In this document: in pieces, positions 20,865-27,155 of the stretch
Layout: the number at the start of each line of letters is the position of its first letter
Position numbering within the stretch: the stretch's first letter is position 1
NCBI GenBank assembly: GCA_028875875.1
Contig: JAGWUV010000006.1
Span: 1 to 64,000 of the forward strand
Length of the DNA: 64,000 nucleotides
Direction of reading: 5' to 3'
DNA from: Bacteroidota bacterium
Lineage (GTDB): Bacteria > Bacteroidota > Bacteroidia > Chitinophagales > Chitinophagaceae
Made by a program: the position numbers and the translations under genes
The notes under the pieces: model-generated
The model's database searches: none
Told to the model about the DNA's origin: nothing
The model's input: the letters and a program-made list of their open reading frames with translations, nothing else

Positions 20865-21494
20865 TTATAAAGCTGAGCCCGTTAAACCGTTGTTTAACGA
20901 AAAAATAATCAGGCTGGTTCGGGAATTGACATTGAATTTTCTAAAAATTTCATCTCTGTGTCTGTCCACTGTTTTTATACTAATGTTGAGTTGCTCTGCG
21001 ATTTGACCATAGGTTAGATCCCTGCATAAAAATTGAAAAATTTCATTTTCTTTTAAAGTGAGTTTTGGCAAATGTTTTAGTTTTCTTTTAGCCTCTCTCA
21101 CCCATTTATTAATGTGAAAACCCTTTTCGTACACATCCGTAATAGCAAGGTACATATCTTCCGGCTCATCATTTTTCGAGATAAAGGTATCTGCTCCTTT
21201 TTCAAGTACCATATTGATGGCATACTCATTATCATAACCTGACAGAGCAATAATTTTTGTATCAGGGAAATGTTGTTTAAGGTAAGTAATTGTTTCATAG
21301 CCATCCATACCAGGCATCCTGATATCGACGATAATTATGTGAGGAGGATTAGTACTAATTTTAAAAATTAGTTCTTTCCCGTTTTGAGCTTCTGTAAGCA
21401 GGGAGAGCTGTTTAAAATTTAATAAGGTGGCAATAAGCGTTTTCCTGAATAAAGTATGGTCATCACATACAGCAAAGGTGATTGTTGCGTTCAT
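20865..21494 (-). CDS. NarL/FixJ-type response regulator (REC + LuxR HTH)
   Basis: A 209-residue two-component regulator. The receiver domain has the acidic pair in AVCDDHTLFRKTL, the phospho-Asp in IIIVDIRMPGMDG, and a conserved Lys (ISKNDEPEDMY). The LuxR-type DNA-binding domain lies at the C-terminus (LTLKENEIFQFLCRDLTYGQ, then ISIKTVDRHRDEIFRKFNV). The start at 21492-21494 is preferred to 21530, because a TATGTTTG promoter-like element (21524-21531, minus strand) overlaps the upstream ATG. No histidine kinase is adjacent. It is transcribed divergently from the bacteriocin-like locus, so it may control it; this is inference. Confidence 0.88.
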   Translation of the reverse strand: MNATITFAVCDDHTLFRKTLIATLLNFKQLSLLTEAQNGKELIFKISTNPPHIIIVDIRMPGMDGYETITYLKQHFPDTKIIALSGYDNEYAINMVLEKGADTFISKNDEPEDMYLAITDVYEKGFHINKWVREAKRKLKHLPKLTLKENEIFQFLCRDLTYGQIAEQLNISIKTVDRHRDEIFRKFNVNSRTSLIIFSLNNGLTGSAL

Positions 21495-21583
21495 AAACGA
21501 ATAGTATTCATGCAAAGGAGTTACAAACATAACTAATACTTGTTTGAATGAAGATGATTTTTATTTAATGTTAATTTAATATA

Positions 21584-21605
21584 AAATGGGGTAAAATCCC
21601 CATTT
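21584..21605. promoter_or_regulatory. palindrome overlapping the putative promoter of the first precursor; candidate operator
   Basis: A perfect 8-bp inverted repeat AAATGGGG / CCCCATTT with a 6-nt centre. Its right arm overlaps the TTTG at 21603-21606 that I read as the -33 element. Position between the divergent regulator and precursor genes suggests an operator. A terminator is less likely, as no T-run follows. Confidence 0.4.
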
Positions 21606-21632
21606 GTGTAATTGAGTTGTATTATAGTTTTG
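21603..21632 (+). promoter_or_regulatory. putative promoter of the first precursor transcript
   Basis: TTTG at 21603-21606, an 18-nt spacer, and TAGTTTTG at 21625-21632, an exact TAnnTTTG match of the Bacteroidota -7 element. The start site would fall near 21640, about 60 nt before the structured leader. Confidence 0.45.
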
Positions 21633-21656
21633 GTCTATACCGGTATGCAGTTTTAT

Positions 21657-21668
21657 TCCTTAATTAAC
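21657..21668 (+). promoter_or_regulatory. 12-nt element TCCTTAATTAAC shared upstream of both leaders (copy 1)
   Basis: Identical to 22996-23007. It lies 30 nt before the leader here and 39 nt before it in the second copy. It contains the palindrome TTAATTAA. It may be a promoter or regulator site common to both precursor units. Confidence 0.35.
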
Positions 21669-21698
21669 CTGATTTGCTAGCAGATTGTTTAAAAAAAA

Positions 21699-21827
21699 GA
21701 CGTTGACAGTTAACGAAACTGTTACGGGATTAGTAATGAACAGCCGTGCATAAAAGCAACTGTAAACCTTGCAGTACAAGCAAGTAAATAAACCGCTGAG
21801 CATTAACGAACCATGGCGTTAGACAGG
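21699..21827 (+). promoter_or_regulatory. structured 5' leader RNA, copy A, ahead of the first precursor
   Basis: Related to copy B at 23047-23212. Helices: P2 ACAG 21706-21709 with CTGT 21719-21722; P3 ACGG 21724-21727 with CCGT 21744-21747; P4 CTTGC 21768-21772 with GCAAG 21780-21784. In copy B the outer pairs of P2 and P3 change together (A-T to G-C). The 3' part (21792-21827) is a 36-nt block that is 34/36 identical to copy B and ends 25 nt before the start codon. TAACG in the P2 loop (21711-21715) is complementary to CGTTA at 21817-21821, a possible pseudoknot. I match it to no known riboswitch class. Confidence 0.7.
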
Positions 21828-21839
21828 ACTTTAAAATAA
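21813..21839 (+). other. 8-codon mini-ORF inside leader A (MALDRTLK)
   Basis: ATG inside the conserved 36-nt block, stop TAA at 21837-21839, 13 nt before the precursor ATG. Copy B encodes MALDRGKT with the same length. No clear ribosome-binding site; the conservation could reflect RNA structure alone. Confidence 0.25.
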
Positions 21840-21852
21840 AATTTTTAAAAAA

Positions 21853-22041
21853 ATGAATGTTTTATCTTTAAATCAAATGGAACAAATTGAAGGCGGTTTC
21901 CATTGGAAATGCCTACTTGGGATCATTGGAGGGGCTTTATTGGGAGCATCGGCAGTTTTATCTGGCGGATCTTCATTAGCAATTGTAGGAGGAACTGTAG
22001 GTGGTGGATTAGCTGGTGCCGCTGCTTCATGTTTTAATTAA
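21853..22041 (+). CDS. double-glycine leader peptide, bacteriocin-like precursor 1
   Basis: A 62-residue precursor. The leader MNVLSLNQMEQIEGG (15 residues) has the hydrophobic spacing and terminal Gly-Gly cut site recognised by C39 peptidases. The 47-residue core is very hydrophobic and Gly/Ala-rich, with GxxxG-type patterns (GIIGGALLGA, GGTVGGGLAGA), and has exactly two Cys, at core positions 5 and 45. This fits a small pore-forming class II bacteriocin, possibly with one disulfide joining its ends. The second precursor at 23237 shares the leader but not the core. The exporter with a C39 domain lies at 24960. A peptide signal instead of a toxin is possible. Confidence 0.8.
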   Translation: MNVLSLNQMEQIEGGFHWKCLLGIIGGALLGASAVLSGGSSLAIVGGTVGGGLAGAAASCFN

Positions 22042-22222
22042 AATTACCCAAAATATATCTGTAGCTAGCCAAAGAGAAATATAATGCGTAGTTCTCTAAT
22101 CATGCAAATTAACTATTTTATAATGATATAGATAAAAAGTTTAATACATATAAGCCAGCTTCAGGTATTAAAAAGTGACAGGTAGAGGTAGTGTTTATAA
22201 TTTAAAATAAAATATTTTAAGT

Positions 22223-22846
22223 ATGAAAAAGTTGACATTTTTTTTAGTCTGTATATTTTTAGTGAATAGAGTAATGCCTCAATTAAATCCTGCTACTACT
22301 ATTTTCCTTATTACACATAATCCTGAAAATAAAAGTTACATAGGAAACATAATCTTGGCAAATGGAGATACATTAAAAAATAAAATAATTAAATTAAATT
22401 ATTCTAAGAAAAATAAAAAGGGAGTTTTATTAACAGGGCATAACGCTAATTTTATTTCTACTGAAAAGATAAAAGAAGTACAGATGGCAAATCTGTCAGA
22501 TAGCTGTAGGTTGGAAGAATCAGGGTTTAAATACACAAAAATTTTTACTCTTAAAAATACCAAAGGGGAGGAAAGAATGTGGAGGATGTTATTTACCGGA
22601 AAGGCAAACATCTATGACGATTTGTTAATTCCGTTAAATAGTTCTAATCAATTAGGTGAGACTTTTTTAATTATGAAAAAAAGTATTCCACTTAATACAC
22701 AATACAGCTTTATTGCTACAGGTCTGTCTTTATCTAAAAAAGAAAGATTTGTAAATTATATAAACAAAACATATCAAACGAATTTTAAGAAAAGTGATTT
22801 TAAAAACAAAGAAGCTGCATTGAAATACATTGCTGAAAACGGGTAA
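22223..22846 (+). CDS. hypothetical secreted protein between the two precursors
   Basis: A 207-residue protein with an N-terminal signal sequence (MKKLTFFLVCIFLVNRVMPQ) and a basic, Lys/Asn-rich body without further membrane segments. No family is recognised. The C-terminal third (KKERFVNYINKTYQTNFKKS and following) is helical. Its codons are as AT-rich as those of the precursor genes. Position 182 nt after precursor 1 suggests a role in this locus, such as self-protection or peptide handling, but nothing in the sequence proves it. Confidence 0.55.
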   Translation: MKKLTFFLVCIFLVNRVMPQLNPATTIFLITHNPENKSYIGNIILANGDTLKNKIIKLNYSKKNKKGVLLTGHNANFISTEKIKEVQMANLSDSCRLEESGFKYTKIFTLKNTKGEERMWRMLFTGKANIYDDLLIPLNSSNQLGETFLIMKKSIPLNTQYSFIATGLSLSKKERFVNYINKTYQTNFKKSDFKNKEAALKYIAENG

Positions 22847-22995
22847 TATCGACTATTTGTAATGCTAAAAACATTGTAAATCTAATGCTGAACTGTGTTT
22901 TCCCTGCGAAAATGGAAACTGTTGGAGATATAAGTCCATGATATTAAAATCTATGAAATAATTCTTAAAAATATTGCGCATAAAATAGAGTTTAC

Positions 22996-23007
22996 TCCTT
23001 AATTAAC
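22996..23007 (+). promoter_or_regulatory. 12-nt element TCCTTAATTAAC shared upstream of both leaders (copy 2)
   Basis: Second copy of the element at 21657-21668. It is followed by a copy-specific hairpin with arms TGGTTTAT (23011-23018) and ATAAACCA (23026-23033). Confidence 0.35.
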
Positions 23008-23046
23008 TCTTGGTTTATTACGCGTATAAACCATAAATAAAAAAAG

Positions 23047-23212
23047 GACGTTGGCAGATAACGTTACTGCTGCGGGTTTAGCTATTACAGCCGCTTAGAA
23101 ATATAAAACTGAAAACCTTGCAGTAAAGCAAGTCGTACCATTTATGGTATGATGCCGATTTTTCGGTATAAATAAAACCGCTGAACATTAACAAACCATG
23201 GCGTTAGACAGG
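23047..23212 (+). promoter_or_regulatory. structured 5' leader RNA, copy B, ahead of the second precursor
   Basis: Same architecture as copy A: P2 GCAG 23054-23057 with CTGC 23067-23070 (9-nt loop in both copies), one T, then P3 GCGG 23072-23075 with CCGC 23091-23094, then P4 CTTGC 23117-23121 with GCAAG 23128-23132. Where copy A has a short linker, copy B carries two extra hairpins: TACCA/TGGTA (23136-23149) and TGCCGA/TCGGTA (23153-23168). The 36-nt 3' block is 23177-23212, ending 24 nt before the start codon. Possible pseudoknot: TAACG 23059-23063 with CGTTA 23202-23206. Confidence 0.7.
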
Positions 23213-23224
23213 GGAAAAACTTAA
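23198..23224 (+). other. 8-codon mini-ORF inside leader B (MALDRGKT)
   Basis: Same position and length as the mini-ORF in leader A; the first five codons are identical at the nucleotide level. It ends in TAA, 12 nt before the precursor ATG. Confidence 0.25.
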
Positions 23225-23236
23225 AAATTTAATGCA

Positions 23237-23431
23237 ATGAATACTTTATCTTTAAATCAAATGGAAAATTTAACAGGAGGAATGTCTGCAATTCAAAGAG
23301 CTTGTAAAATATATGCTGGAGCTCAAGCTATTTATGGATGGGGTATCTTAGCAGAAGCATGGAATCCAGTTGGTGCAACAGCTACCGGTATTATGTTATT
23401 AGGGGATGCTGCATGTTATTTTTTAAGCTAA
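23237..23431 (+). CDS. double-glycine leader peptide, bacteriocin-like precursor 2
   Basis: A 64-residue precursor with leader MNTLSLNQMENLTGG, 15 residues as in precursor 1. A 22-nt stretch of the leader coding region (23245-23266) is identical to 21861-21882. The 49-residue core is different: it starts MSAIQRACKIYAGAQ, is amphipathic/hydrophobic and aromatic, and again has two Cys, at core positions 8 and 45. Probably a second bacteriocin, or the partner in a two-peptide bacteriocin. A two-helix membrane protein starting at 23452 (or 23413, overlapping this stop) may give immunity. Confidence 0.8.
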   Translation: MNTLSLNQMENLTGGMSAIQRACKIYAGAQAIYGWGILAEAWNPVGATATGIMLLGDAACYFLS

Positions 23432-23765: not shown

Positions 23766-24407
23766 ATGCTAAATATTTATGCTTTTAATAGATTGACAAT
23801 CTATATTCTATTCGTTTGTTTTCTTATATCTCTATCGTGGTTTTCAAACAAATACATACTTAATGATACTTTTTATTATTCCATATTAGAGAATAATTTT
23901 AGCGAAGAACGAGTTAGGAATTTTGTTGAGTTTAATGATAAATATCAATGGCTGAATTATATGATAATTCCGATTATGCTTTTGTTTAAATGGGTAGCAT
24001 TATCTGGCATTCTTTATATAGGGCTATTTTTTTATAATCAAAATGTTGCGTATAAAAATTGTTTTAAAATCATGCAAATGGCAGAATTGGCCATGCTATT
24101 GGCTGCATCTGCCAAATTAATTTATTTTATTTTTAATACTCCCCAAACTATACAAGATGTGCAATATTTTTACCCACTTGCAATAACACAATTCTTTACG
24201 CTTAAACAAATAGCTTCATACTTAGTATATCCTTTGCAGCAGTTTAATCTATTCGAGTTGGGGTATTGGGTTTTGATTACTTCAGGTATTCAAACATTTA
24301 CGCAAAAAAATTTTTGGCAGTCTCTAAAAATTACCGCTTCCAGTTATGGTGTAGCCATGTTTATTTGGTTATTATTTATTGTGTTTATTCAATTACAATT
24401 TAGTTAG
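23766..24407 (+). CDS. multi-pass membrane protein, first gene of the peptide-export operon
   Basis: A 213-residue protein with about five membrane segments (near residues 10-27, 68-90, 100-118, 135-150, 185-210). No family is recognised with confidence; the even spacing of spans loosely recalls Yip1-like or DoxX/MauE-like proteins. It ends 3 nt before the thioredoxin-like gene, so the two are co-expressed. It may be a redox partner of that protein, an accessory factor of the exporter, or an immunity protein. Confidence 0.55.
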   Translation: MLNIYAFNRLTIYILFVCFLISLSWFSNKYILNDTFYYSILENNFSEERVRNFVEFNDKYQWLNYMIIPIMLLFKWVALSGILYIGLFFYNQNVAYKNCFKIMQMAELAMLLAASAKLIYFIFNTPQTIQDVQYFYPLAITQFFTLKQIASYLVYPLQQFNLFELGYWVLITSGIQTFTQKNFWQSLKITASSYGVAMFIWLLFIVFIQLQFS

Positions 24408-24959: not shown

Positions 24960-27155
24960 ATGCAAGCTAAAGAACTTCAGCAATCATTTATACTTCAACA
25001 AGGCGAAGCCGATTGTGGTGTTGCTTGCTTATTATCCATCATACGTTATTATGGCGGCAACAATACTTTAGAAAATCTACGCAAATTAAGCGGTACCAAT
25101 ATTACCGGAACAACATTGTTAGGGTTATATCAGGCTGCGAATCAAATTGGTTTTACTGCCGAAGGCTGTGAAGCAGATATAGCTGCATTAATTCAGCATC
25201 CAAGCCCGTTGATATTGCATGTAGTTATTGATAAACAATTACAGCATTATGTGGTTTGTTTCGGTACAAAAACTCAGGGTAATGAATTGAAATTTGTTAT
25301 TGGCGATCCTGCTAAAGGGATTGTTTATTTATCGCGTAACGAACTGGCTGCTATCTGGCAGTCAAAAACATGCTTAACCTTAGAACCCAATAAAGATTTT
25401 AAAAAAGCAGCAGTAATTACCAATCAAAAAAAACAATGGATCAAACAATTGATTAGAGAAGACATTTCGCTTTTATCTATTGCTGCTGCGATAGGTGTGG
25501 GCATTGCGGTATTGGGTATTGTAATGAGTTTGTTCTCCCAGCGTTTAATTGATGACATATTACCAAAGAAGAACTTTGTTAAGTTAAACTTAGGTATTGC
25601 ATTGGTGTTTTTATTGTTGTTGGCAAAAGAAGGTTTATCGGCTTTGAGGCAATATTTTTTATTCAGGCAGGCTAAAGATTTTAATAACCGAATTATCAAC
25701 AGTTTCTATTCGCGGTTATTACGATTGCCAAAGGCTTTTTTTGATACCCGTAAAATTGGGGAATTGACGGCAAGGTTAACAGATACATCAAGAATACAAA
25801 GAGTAATCAGTCAATTGGCTGGCAATGTTGTAATAGACGTATTGGTAACATTAGTAGTATTTGGGTTTTTATTCTTTTACTCATGGAAAATAGCGTTAGC
25901 ATCACTGTTGGCATTGCCGCTTTATTTTATACTCATTTTCAAGCATAACAAAAGTATCATTGATGGTCAAAAAAATATTATGAGCAGTTATGCTATGAGT
26001 GAAGCCAATTATATTTCAACGTTGCAAGGAATAGAACCTATAAAAAATTACAGTAAACAGGCGTTGTTTGCAAACACCAATCATATTATTTATAGCAAGT
26101 TCCAGGATAGTATTTTCTCTTTGGGAAAAATTCAAATTAAGCTTGGTTTTATAGCCAATGGTTTTGGCATTGTTTTTTTATTAGGAATTCTTTTACACAG
26201 CAGCTATCAGGTATTATACGGTCAATTAAAGGTAGGTGAATTGATGGCAATATTAGGAATGTGTTCTACTTTGTTACCAAGTATTGCAAATCTGGCATTG
26301 GTTTCCATCCCTGTAAATGAAGCTAAAATTGCATTCGACAGAATGTTTGAATTTACAGGTATTGAGCCTGAAAAAAATAATGAAGCTATTGAAATAACAC
26401 AGTTTGAATCTTTAAAGGTTGAATATATTTTATTTCGCTTTGCAGGAAGAAGTCCGGTTTTTAATAACGTTTCTTTCGAAGTTAATACGGGTGAAATTGT
26501 TGCTATCATGGGCGAAAACGGTAGTGGTAAGAGTACTATTTCTCAAATCATTCAGAAGCATTACGAATGTGAGAATGGAAATATTATAATTAATCATACC
26601 GATTCTCTAAAAGATATATCATTCAACAGTTGGCGCAAAATTGTGAGTGTAGTTCCCCAGCAGATACACATTTTTAATGCGACTGTTTTAGAAAACATTG
26701 CATTTGATGATGCAGCTACAAAAACACAGGAAGTAATTAAGTTTTTAAATGAATACGGTTTTGGTGTTTTTATGGATAGCTTACCGCAATCGGTTATGAC
26801 ATTAGTGGGTGAAGAAGGTATTAATTTATCTGGCGGACAAAAACAAATGATTGCATTAGCAAGGGCTTTATACCACAGGCCTCAACTTTTAATACTTGAT
26901 GAAGCTACTTCTGCCATGGATAGAAATTCGGAGCAATTTGTTTTAGGGTTATTGAAAAGATTAAAACAAGATATGGCAATTATATTTATTAGCCATAGGC
27001 TCCATGTATTAAAATCAATTTGTGACAGGATATATGTGCTTGATAATGGAACTACTGTTGTATCAGGAAATCATTTAGACTTATTACAATCCACAAATTT
27101 ATACAGCAATTATTGGAACGATTTAATTAGTCAACATTCAAACAGTTCAATATGA
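24960..27155 (+). CDS. peptidase-containing ABC exporter (C39 domain) for double-glycine peptides
   Basis: A 731-residue protein that cuts the leader after Gly-Gly and exports the peptide. The N-terminal C39 domain (1 to about 145) has the oxyanion Gln13, catalytic C19 (GEADCGVAC), H96 (LQHYVV) and D116 (GDP). The transmembrane domain covers about 165-450. The ATPase domain has Walker A GENGSGKST (about 517), signature LSGGQKQ (about 623), Walker B LLILDEATS (about 643) and the switch His in ISHR. All catalytic residues are present, so both activities should be intact. It overlaps the next gene by 4 nt. Confidence 0.95.
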   Translation: MQAKELQQSFILQQGEADCGVACLLSIIRYYGGNNTLENLRKLSGTNITGTTLLGLYQAANQIGFTAEGCEADIAALIQHPSPLILHVVIDKQLQHYVVCFGTKTQGNELKFVIGDPAKGIVYLSRNELAAIWQSKTCLTLEPNKDFKKAAVITNQKKQWIKQLIREDISLLSIAAAIGVGIAVLGIVMSLFSQRLIDDILPKKNFVKLNLGIALVFLLLLAKEGLSALRQYFLFRQAKDFNNRIINSFYSRLLRLPKAFFDTRKIGELTARLTDTSRIQRVISQLAGNVVIDVLVTLVVFGFLFFYSWKIALASLLALPLYFILIFKHNKSIIDGQKNIMSSYAMSEANYISTLQGIEPIKNYSKQALFANTNHIIYSKFQDSIFSLGKIQIKLGFIANGFGIVFLLGILLHSSYQVLYGQLKVGELMAILGMCSTLLPSIANLALVSIPVNEAKIAFDRMFEFTGIEPEKNNEAIEITQFESLKVEYILFRFAGRSPVFNNVSFEVNTGEIVAIMGENGSGKSTISQIIQKHYECENGNIIINHTDSLKDISFNSWRKIVSVVPQQIHIFNATVLENIAFDDAATKTQEVIKFLNEYGFGVFMDSLPQSVMTLVGEEGINLSGGQKQMIALARALYHRPQLLILDEATSAMDRNSEQFVLGLLKRLKQDMAIIFISHRLHVLKSICDRIYVLDNGTTVVSGNHLDLLQSTNLYSNYWNDLISQHSNSSI

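What the first reader, a model, noticed from the sequence alone, without database searches (positions are those of the whole stretch)
21699..23212. Two copies of an undescribed, covarying leader RNA precede the two double-glycine peptides
The text before 21853 and before 23237 shares one architecture: P2 (ACAG/CTGT versus GCAG/CTGC), a single T, P3 (ACGG/CCGT versus GCGG/CCGC), P4 (CTTGC/GCAAG), then a 36-nt block with 34 identical positions ending 24-25 nt from the start codon. The A-T to G-C changes in the outer pairs of P2 and P3 keep pairing in both helices. Copy B has two additional hairpins exactly where copy A has a short linker, as real structured RNAs do. A conserved TAACG/CGTTA match suggests a pseudoknot joining the P2 loop to the 3' block. 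I cannot match it to a known riboswitch, and the coupling to bacteriocin precursors would be a new type of control.
Basis: partly seen in the sequence, partly recalled or inferred. Interest (0 to 1): 0.9.

Follow-up and report, generated by a model that had tools for sequence, protein, structure and literature searches.

The report
New structured leader RNA before exported-peptide genes
A folded RNA that seems to be undescribed sits in front of genes for bacteriocin-like and other exported small proteins in one family of bacteria, and its paired bases have changed together during evolution, so it is probably a real control device whose trigger is unknown.

Summary
Two similar leaders (75% and 93% identity in the two aligned pieces) precede the two double-glycine peptides; no other copy was found in the genome. 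A covariance model finds the element in 22 of 394 genomes sampled from the same family, own included (Chitinophagaceae by the named hits). In a class-wide sample of 395 it finds three: own, one family member and one marginal match. With a second model and a pattern search I count 36 elements.

The larger alignment confirms P2 and P3 with tree-aware covariation. The proposed TAACG/CGTTA pseudoknot is not conserved (2 of 12).

No Rfam match was found at the elements scanned. Downstream genes, read by eye, are double-glycine peptides (15 of 36) or other exported proteins (17 of 36).

Best reading: a new class of cis-acting mRNA leader controlling exported peptides, most likely at translation start. 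Its trigger is unknown.

The parts
21645..21827 (+). Copy A of the leader RNA (conserved part, P1 to P5)
   Evidence: R3 match 21645-21768, 87 bits; R2 match 21767-21831, 78.9 bits; copies A and B were among the sequences both models were built from
22984..23212 (+). Copy B of the leader RNA (conserved part, P1 to P5)
   Evidence: R3 match 22984-23117, 97.1 bits; R2 match 23116-23216, 54.6 bits; built into both models
21648..21671 (+). Copy A P1 (CAG/CTG) with conserved loop TTTTATTCCTTAATTAAC
   Evidence: sequence; P1 83.3% paired cells over 24 elements, 3 of 4 pairs with both-side changes
22987..23010 (+). Copy B P1 (AGAG/CTCT) with conserved loop
   Evidence: sequence
22996..23048 (+). Copy B pseudoknot PK1: TCCTT 22996-23000 with AAGGA 23044-23048 (copy A: 21657-21661 with 21696-21700, one of five pairs a C-A mismatch)
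   Evidence: found by RNAalifold without being asked for; 94.7% paired, both-side changes at 3 of 5 pairs; helix score reached by 1/600 and 0/600 nulls
21705..21723 (+). Copy A P2 (GACAG/CTGTT)
23053..23071 (+). Copy B P2 (GGCAG/CTGCT)
21724..21747 (+). Copy A P3 (ACGG/CCGT)
23072..23094 (+). Copy B P3 (GCGG/CCGC)
21768..21784 (+). Copy A P4 (CTTGC/GCAAG)
   Evidence: P4 covaries, e.g. ACTGC/GCAGT in Hydrotalea sandarakina (L020)
23117..23132 (+). Copy B P4 (CTTGC/GCAAG)
23134..23169 (+). Copy B extra hairpins (TACCATTTATGGTA; GCCGATTTTTCGGT); a homologous insert is present in L092
   Evidence: by eye
21793..21831 (+). Copy A 3' block CCGCTGAGCAT and P5 (essentially CC/GG here, loop ATGGCGTTAGACA)
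   Evidence: P5 is up to 6 bp in relatives
23178..23216 (+). Copy B 3' block CCGCTGAACAT and P5 (CC/GG here, loop ATGGCGTTAGACA)
21604..21632 (+). Candidate Bacteroidota promoter of copy A: TTG 21604-21606, 18 nt, TAGTTTTG 21625-21632 (consensus recalled); TAnnTTTG not found upstream of copy B
   Evidence: sequence; no transcript data
21853..22041 (+). Double-glycine peptide 1, MNVLSLNQMEQIEGG...
   Evidence: Pfam Bacteriocin_IIc 6e-6, just below cut-off
23237..23431 (+). Double-glycine peptide 2, MNTLSLNQMENLTGG...
   Evidence: Pfam Bacteriocin_IIc 0.011, below cut-off
23766..24407 (+). Hydrophobic protein (by eye) with a homologue at the corresponding place in L078
24411..24944 (+). Thioredoxin-like thiol oxidoreductase
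   Evidence: PF00085, 1e-10
24960..27155 (+). ABC exporter with C39 leader peptidase, the only C39 match in the genome
20865..21530 (-). LuxR-type response regulator, divergent from copy A
   Evidence: PF00072, PF00196; similar neighbours in several relatives

Best explanation
The two leaders are copies of a new class of cis-acting structured RNA, made as the 5' part of the mRNA of exported peptides.

Shown by sequence comparison: a conserved architecture of P1 whose loop can pair (PK1) with the AAGGA in front of P2, then P2, P3, a variable P4 module, and P5, which ends 18-27 nt before the start codon in 20 of 22 cases measured. Stems covary and loops are conserved. 32 of 36 elements point towards a gene for an exported protein.

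Inferred: the element is transcribed; transcription is switched by a neighbouring LuxR-type response regulator. The RNA then sets how well the mRNA is translated, with P5 at the upstream edge of the ribosome's landing site as the output and P1/PK1 as the core. A small molecule or protein binding the conserved loops would shift the RNA between a translated and an untranslated form, so that peptide toxins and surface lipoproteins are made only in one state. The ligand or partner is unknown.
For: Relatives: R3 finds 22 of 394 family genomes and 13 of 101 genera, own included in both.

Covariation: 24 elements give 93.3% paired cells and a covariation score of 0.475 against 0.164 +/- 0.015 in shuffles (0/500) and at most 0.106 when partners are slid (the alignment was fitted to P1-P3). 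A tree-aware null with 600 simulated alignments of 23 elements puts three P2/P3 pairs first among 6,328 pairs, at E 0 to 0.0017. At helix level P1, P2 and P3 are reached by 0/600 nulls and PK1 by 1/600; without near-duplicates (20 rows) all four by 0/600. P5, aligned by hand: 22 rows, 26 both-side-changed cells against 9.7 in shuffles, 0/2000 (not tree-aware).

PK1 came from an unconstrained RNAalifold run and was not part of R3.

Position: 18-27 nt from the end of P5 to ATG in 20 of 22.

Downstream genes, read by eye: 15 double-glycine peptides and 17 other exported proteins of 36 elements. In 6 of 7 genomes checked, all chosen because their elements precede GG peptides, a C39 exporter gene lies 1.6-2.4 kb from an element.

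No terminator-like site follows P5 in the window stretch scanned. The start region is predicted more open than the rest of the leader in 16 of 19.
Against: No transcript, probing or ligand data. The leaders are not unusually stable: mean MFE z is -0.65, and only 4 of 19 lie below -1.5.

P5 has only 3 and 2 of 6 positions paired in the window's own copies, and 9 elements have no P5 that I could place (L023, L024, L079, L080 twice, L082, L094, L111, L116). Short forms lack P2-P4. If P5 is the output, copies without it must work differently.

In the two window copies and one L080 copy the start region is not more open than the rest (0.32 against 0.48; 0.44 against 0.47; 0.50 against 0.53). The recalled promoter consensus TAnnTTTG is seen in 2 of 8 leaders scanned (A and L013).

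Most single pairs of P1 and PK1 are not significant alone in the tree-aware test. C39 genes elsewhere in G215, G137, G066 and G145 have no R3 match beside them, so the RNA does not mark every such locus.
Confidence: 0.6

Rival explanations
1. The RNA is a ligand-sensing riboswitch in the strict sense: the conserved loops form an aptamer for a metabolite or signalling nucleotide tied to competition or envelope stress.
For: About 180-260 nt from P1 to ATG in 17 of 19 leaders measured, several conserved loop motifs on covarying stems, a supported pseudoknot, separate operons with a shared theme of export.
Against: No biosynthesis or transport gene was noticed that would name a ligand; no clear expression platform; modules P2-P4 can be absent (L113, L114, L115, by eye).
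Confidence: 0.3
2. The RNA is a binding platform for an RNA-binding protein or a trans-acting small RNA that controls mRNA stability or translation.
For: The near restriction to one bacterial family in the samples searched fits a lineage-specific protein or sRNA partner; the conserved loops would be contacts.
Against: The only regulator gene I saw repeatedly beside the element is the response regulator, which carries a LuxR-type DNA-binding domain; neighbours were not surveyed for RNA-binding proteins.
Confidence: 0.3
3. The conserved region acts as DNA: the response regulator's operator and promoter, or a mobile or recombination site (attC-like), with pairing a by-product.
For: A LuxR-type regulator gene is often near; several draft contigs end beside elements; GTTAGAC resembles the recalled attC R' box.
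Against: Stem-specific covariation with conserved loops fits single-stranded structure; same orientation towards an exported-protein gene in 32 of 36 and similar spacing to ATG in 20 of 22; GTTRRRY in only 8 of 22 P5 loops; no clear excess of inverted repeats upstream (5 of 23 against 2.6 in shuffles, maximum 7).
Confidence: 0.08
4. The similarity of A and B is only a recent duplication of a promoter region without function as RNA.
For: A and B lie about 1.35 kb apart with similar peptides; L080 also holds a duplicated pair that shares upstream sequence.
Against: Homologues in 13 genera, own included, with compensatory changes.
Confidence: 0.02

Closest known systems
Bacteroidetocin loci (Coyne et al. 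2019, PMC6671954; passages seen, not the whole text)
   Same: GG-leader peptide with 15-16 leader residues, TM protein, thiol oxidoreductase and C39 ABC exporter; the window has a GG peptide with a 15-residue leader, a hydrophobic protein, a thioredoxin-like protein and a C39 exporter in a row.
   Different: The words riboswitch and untranslated do not occur in that text and the passages shown (12 of 17 and 12 of 19 places) mention no leader RNA; the words Chitinophag and Niastella do not occur; the order listed there starts with the TM protein; bacteroidetocins A and B have four cysteines, the window's mature peptides two each.
Riboswitches and orphan cis-regulatory RNAs of bacteria (Rfam 15)
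   Same: Structured 5' leader with conserved loops, covarying stems and a pseudoknot, upstream of genes with a common theme.
   Different: No family matches at the elements scanned; no ligand known; linked to exported peptides and lipoproteins.
Integron attC sites (recalled)
   Same: GTTAGAC-like box, structured, found between genes.
   Different: The box is in only 8 of 22 copies; several helices with conserved loops. Integrases were not searched for.

Membership tests
Any described RNA family (Rfam 15) | Score at or above a family's gathering threshold | tested here: not met
   Window: 0 matches; window region at E<=10: 8 weak matches, all below gathering; 10 relative loci: one tRNA away from the element; 5 loci at E<=0.5: none at the element. 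L019, L020, L023, L024, L027 and the Hydrotalea loci were not scanned
Structured cis-regulatory leader RNA (as a kind) | Covarying secondary structure beyond phylogeny | tested here: met
   P2 and P3 at pair level, P1 and PK1 at helix level; P4 and P5 only against simple shuffles
Structured cis-regulatory leader RNA (as a kind) | Consistent position and orientation before genes of a common theme | tested here: met
   32 of 36 elements precede a GG peptide or other exported protein, by eye; 4 unclear or cut off; spacing 18-27 nt in 20 of 22
Structured cis-regulatory leader RNA (as a kind) | Transcribed as part of the mRNA | not testable with these tools
   No RNA-seq available; recalled promoter consensus in 2 of 8 leaders scanned
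Riboswitch | Direct ligand binding that changes expression | not testable with these tools
   Needs in-line probing and reporters
Riboswitch | Expression platform (terminator or sequestered start) | tested here: inconclusive
   No terminator-like site after P5 in the window stretch; start region predicted more open than the leader in 16 of 19, but not in the two window copies
Integron attC site | GTTRRRY box (recalled) | tested here: not met
   8 of 22 P5 loops
Integron attC site | Integron integrase in the genome | not tested
   No search made
Bacteroidetocin locus | GG peptide, TM protein, thiol oxidoreductase, C39 ABC exporter together | tested here: met
   against the passage; the number of TM regions was not tested
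Bacteroidetocin peptide | Four cysteines in A and B (at least two in weaker relatives) | tested here: inconclusive
   Two cysteines in each mature window peptide

The most novel reading that the evidence does not exclude
A new ligand-responsive RNA class, built around a P1/PK1 core and a P5 output hairpin with an exchangeable P2-P3-P4 module, senses a signal of competition or envelope state and coordinately licenses translation of bacteriocin-type peptides, secreted proteins and surface lipoproteins in Chitinophagaceae. To my knowledge it would be the first riboswitch-like control of peptide warfare in Bacteroidota.
Probability: 0.3. Interest if true: 0.88.

Novelty: new variant of a known kind. 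Interest (0 to 1): 0.75.

Why it matters
A structured leader RNA that marks exported-peptide genes gives a sequence handle for finding unannotated bacteriocin-like and secreted peptides in a family of environmental bacteria. It also raises a testable question: what does the RNA read before these peptides are made? Control of bacteriocin genes by a structured leader RNA of this kind did not turn up in the listings of the paper searches made (open-licence papers only).

Tried and rejected
TAACG/CGTTA pseudoknot: present in A and B, no five-base match in the other 10 of 12 elements examined.

Upstream ORF starting at the CCATGG of the 3' block: the ATG shifts frame against the conserved GCGTTAG between window and Hydrotalea copies and has no stop before the gene in L017 (by eye).

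attC site: GTTRRRY in 8 of 22.

Variable palindrome upstream of P1: inverted repeats not clearly more than chance by my test (5 of 23 against mean 2.6, maximum 7). A roughly conserved TATT-13 nt-TTGCGGG spacing with TAGCTA, TGCGCA or TGGCCA in the middle remains unexplained.

Terminator: three terminator-like matches in the region against 0.6 expected. One lies in copy B's extra hairpins before P5; in L092 the homologous hairpin has no U run (by eye). The other two lie upstream of copy A and on the minus strand. None follows P5.

Phage or plasmid origin: no match to two patterns in viral contigs and none for copy A in plasmids. Phage records were not searched.

Chance matches discarded by eye: L004, L005, L008, L009, L011, L015, L016, L095, L020:5695, and R2 matches above E 1e-4. 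L121 (another family, E 0.0034) lacks the PK1 partner and is probably chance. The large searches used Infernal's stricter filters, which lose some weak matches, so the genome counts are lower bounds.

Rows dropped before counts: A9 left out L092, L094 and the second L080 copy, and six rows began after the P1 5' strand. One search kept matches at E<=0.0005, so L094 is not in A10. Searches left out L110, and the second run left out three near-duplicates. The P5 table (22 rows, aligned by hand) holds one row for the two L085 copies and one for the two L019 copies, and left out L023, L024, L079, L080 (two), L082, L111, L116 and L094 (no clear P5) and L087 (two) and L089 (similar to kept rows). The P4 table used 13 elements and the type-II table 6, both aligned by hand; type-II P4 had 91/2000 shuffles as well paired and 13/2000 with as many both-side changes. 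PK2 rests on one compensatory change and is not significant (333/2000). One search measured 22 cases of 36; L086, L087 (two), L089 and L090 and the nine without P5 are not in it. From, L089 is 46 nt and the second L087 copy 122 nt from ATG.

Full report
What is there. Copy A (21645-21827) and copy B (22984-23212) precede two double-glycine peptide ORFs at 21853 and 23237. In the 3.5-Mb own genome copy B finds itself and copy A, and nothing else above chance. The peptides resemble Bacteriocin_IIc below Pfam's cut-off. They are followed by a hydrophobic protein, a thioredoxin-like protein and a C39-peptidase ABC exporter, the only C39 match in the genome. That is the gene set described for bacteroidetocin loci (PMC6671954, passages seen). 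A LuxR-type response regulator is divergent from copy A.

Relatives. A DNA search of 195 family genomes gave matches in 7, own included, three of them chance by eye. A short pattern of the 3' block matched 5 of 394 genomes, own included, against 1 of 394 for the reversed control (two of the five are chance, by eye). A similar pattern in the genome-contig collection hit Hydrotalea flava (two stretches), Hydrotalea sandarakina and a Chitinophagaceae MAG. I then built covariance models R1 (P2-P3), R2 (P4 and 3' block) and R3 (P1-P2-P3 from 14 sequences). R3 found 22 of 394 family genomes at E<=0.01, in 13 of 101 genera, own included. In a class-wide sample of 395 genomes it found 3: own, one family member, and one marginal match in another family (E 0.0034). 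R2 gave 10 of 294 genomes at E<=1e-4, own included, among them several Hydrotalea-genus genomes (42 of 294 at E<=0.1, mostly weak). I count 36 elements: 25 from R3 and 11 seen only with R2 or the pattern.

Structure. On 24 elements (A10, fitted to R3, so P1-P3 counts lean towards the model), 93.3% of cells pair, 14 of 18 pairs have both-side changes, and the covariation score is 0.475 against 0.164 +/- 0.015 in shuffles and at most 0.106 for slid partners. The P3 outer pair occurs as UA, CG, GC and AU. PK1, which was not part of R3, was predicted by RNAalifold on its own: 94.7% paired, covariation score 0.205 against 0.102 in shuffles, and at most 0.091 for slid partners. A tree-aware null (600 alignments simulated on a FastTree tree, G-test with APC; my own script in the manner of R-scape, not R-scape itself) puts three P2/P3 pairs first among 6,328, at E 0 to 0.0017. 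Helix sums for P1, P2 and P3 are never reached by the null, and PK1 once in 600 (0 in 600 without near-duplicates). Most single pairs of P1 and PK1 are not significant alone.

P5 and P4. P5 forms six pairs in L078 (CAATCC/GGATTG), L084 (CGACCC/GGGTCG), L091, L093, L102 (TACATC/GATGTA), L110 (TTCGTC/GACGAA) and L115. It has only 3 and 2 of 6 positions paired in the window copies; in many copies its loop is close to ATGGCGNNAGACA. Over 22 hand-aligned rows it shows 26 both-side-changed cells against 9.7 in shuffles (0/2000). P4 comes as CTTGC/GCAAG-type hairpins (13 rows, 1/2000) or, in L023, L081, L084, L100, L102 and L110, as a stem whose loop can form a second pseudoknot TCACG/CGTGA (TCATG/CATGA in L102). 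That second pseudoknot is not significant alone. L113, L114 and L115 are short forms that go from P1/PK1 to P5 (read by eye). The 19 leaders folded are on average hardly more stable than shuffles (mean z -0.65), so the case rests on covariation, not energy.

Genes. Read by eye (for L023): 15 of 36 elements precede a double-glycine peptide (in L102 with an apparent frameshift near the start), 17 precede another protein with a signal peptide or lipobox (one interrupted by a stop in L023), and 4 are unclear or run into a contig end. In 6 of 7 genomes checked, chosen because their elements precede GG peptides, a C39 exporter gene lies 1.6-2.4 kb from an element; the seventh, G235, has only a broken C39 remnant there, and some of these genomes have further C39 genes without an R3 match beside them. 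In L019, L023, L027, L087 and L110 a GLPGLI-like protein and an outer-membrane protein lie downstream (similarity search against the Hydrotalea proteins; the names are recalled). Response-regulator homologues lie beside or within a few kilobases of the element in the window and in L019, L023, L080, L082, L085, L086, L088, L089, L090, L100 and L115; five of these loci (L019, L086, L088, L089, L090) are from one genus.

Function. The consistent orientation, the distance of 18-27 nt from P5 to the start codon in 20 of 22 cases (exceptions L100 with 12 and L088 with 123), and conserved loops on covarying stems fit a cis-acting mRNA leader. I infer translational control because no terminator-like site follows P5 in the window stretch scanned and the start region is predicted relatively open in 16 of 19 leaders. 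This is weak: the two window copies do not show it. Which signal is read is unknown. Transcription is probably set by the neighbouring response regulator (inference from adjacency).

Novelty. No Rfam family matches at the elements scanned. Searches of the paper library for structured RNA or leader terms with bacteriocin, Bacteroidetes or Chitinophagaceae (listings only) showed no description. The kind, a structured mRNA leader, is known; this class and its link to exported peptides appear new.

Noticed in passing
L079, L081, L084, L085, L102, L111, L115, L116 upstream of P1; also L078, L091, L113: A roughly conserved stretch upstream of P1: TATT, about 13 nt, then TTGCGGG or similar, with TAGCTA, TGCGCA or TGGCCA in the middle (by eye). 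Could be a promoter or regulator site; inverted repeats are not clearly enriched by my test.
   Followed up: partly
window 20865-21530 and L019, L082, L085, L086, L088, L089, L090, L100, L115: LuxR-type response-regulator genes next to the element, mostly divergent, suggesting a regulon of exported peptides.
   Followed up: partly
window 22223-22846: A 207-aa protein with an apparent signal peptide between the two leaders, with a weak match to TIGR04450, putative immunity/bacteriocin fusion (E 0.008, below cut-off).
   Followed up: no
L086, L087, L088, L090, L084 (contig ends): In some draft genomes contigs end beside the element, as if near-identical copies broke the assembly; two Hydrotalea genomes hold three and four R2 matches.
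   Followed up: no
G235:C118:2681-2974: A broken C39 peptidase remnant with a stop overlaps the upstream part of a leader copy.
   Followed up: no
PK1: The P1 loop TACTCCTTAATT resembles the recalled 16S rRNA 3' end and its partner AAGGA a Shine-Dalgarno site; possibly coincidence.
   Followed up: no
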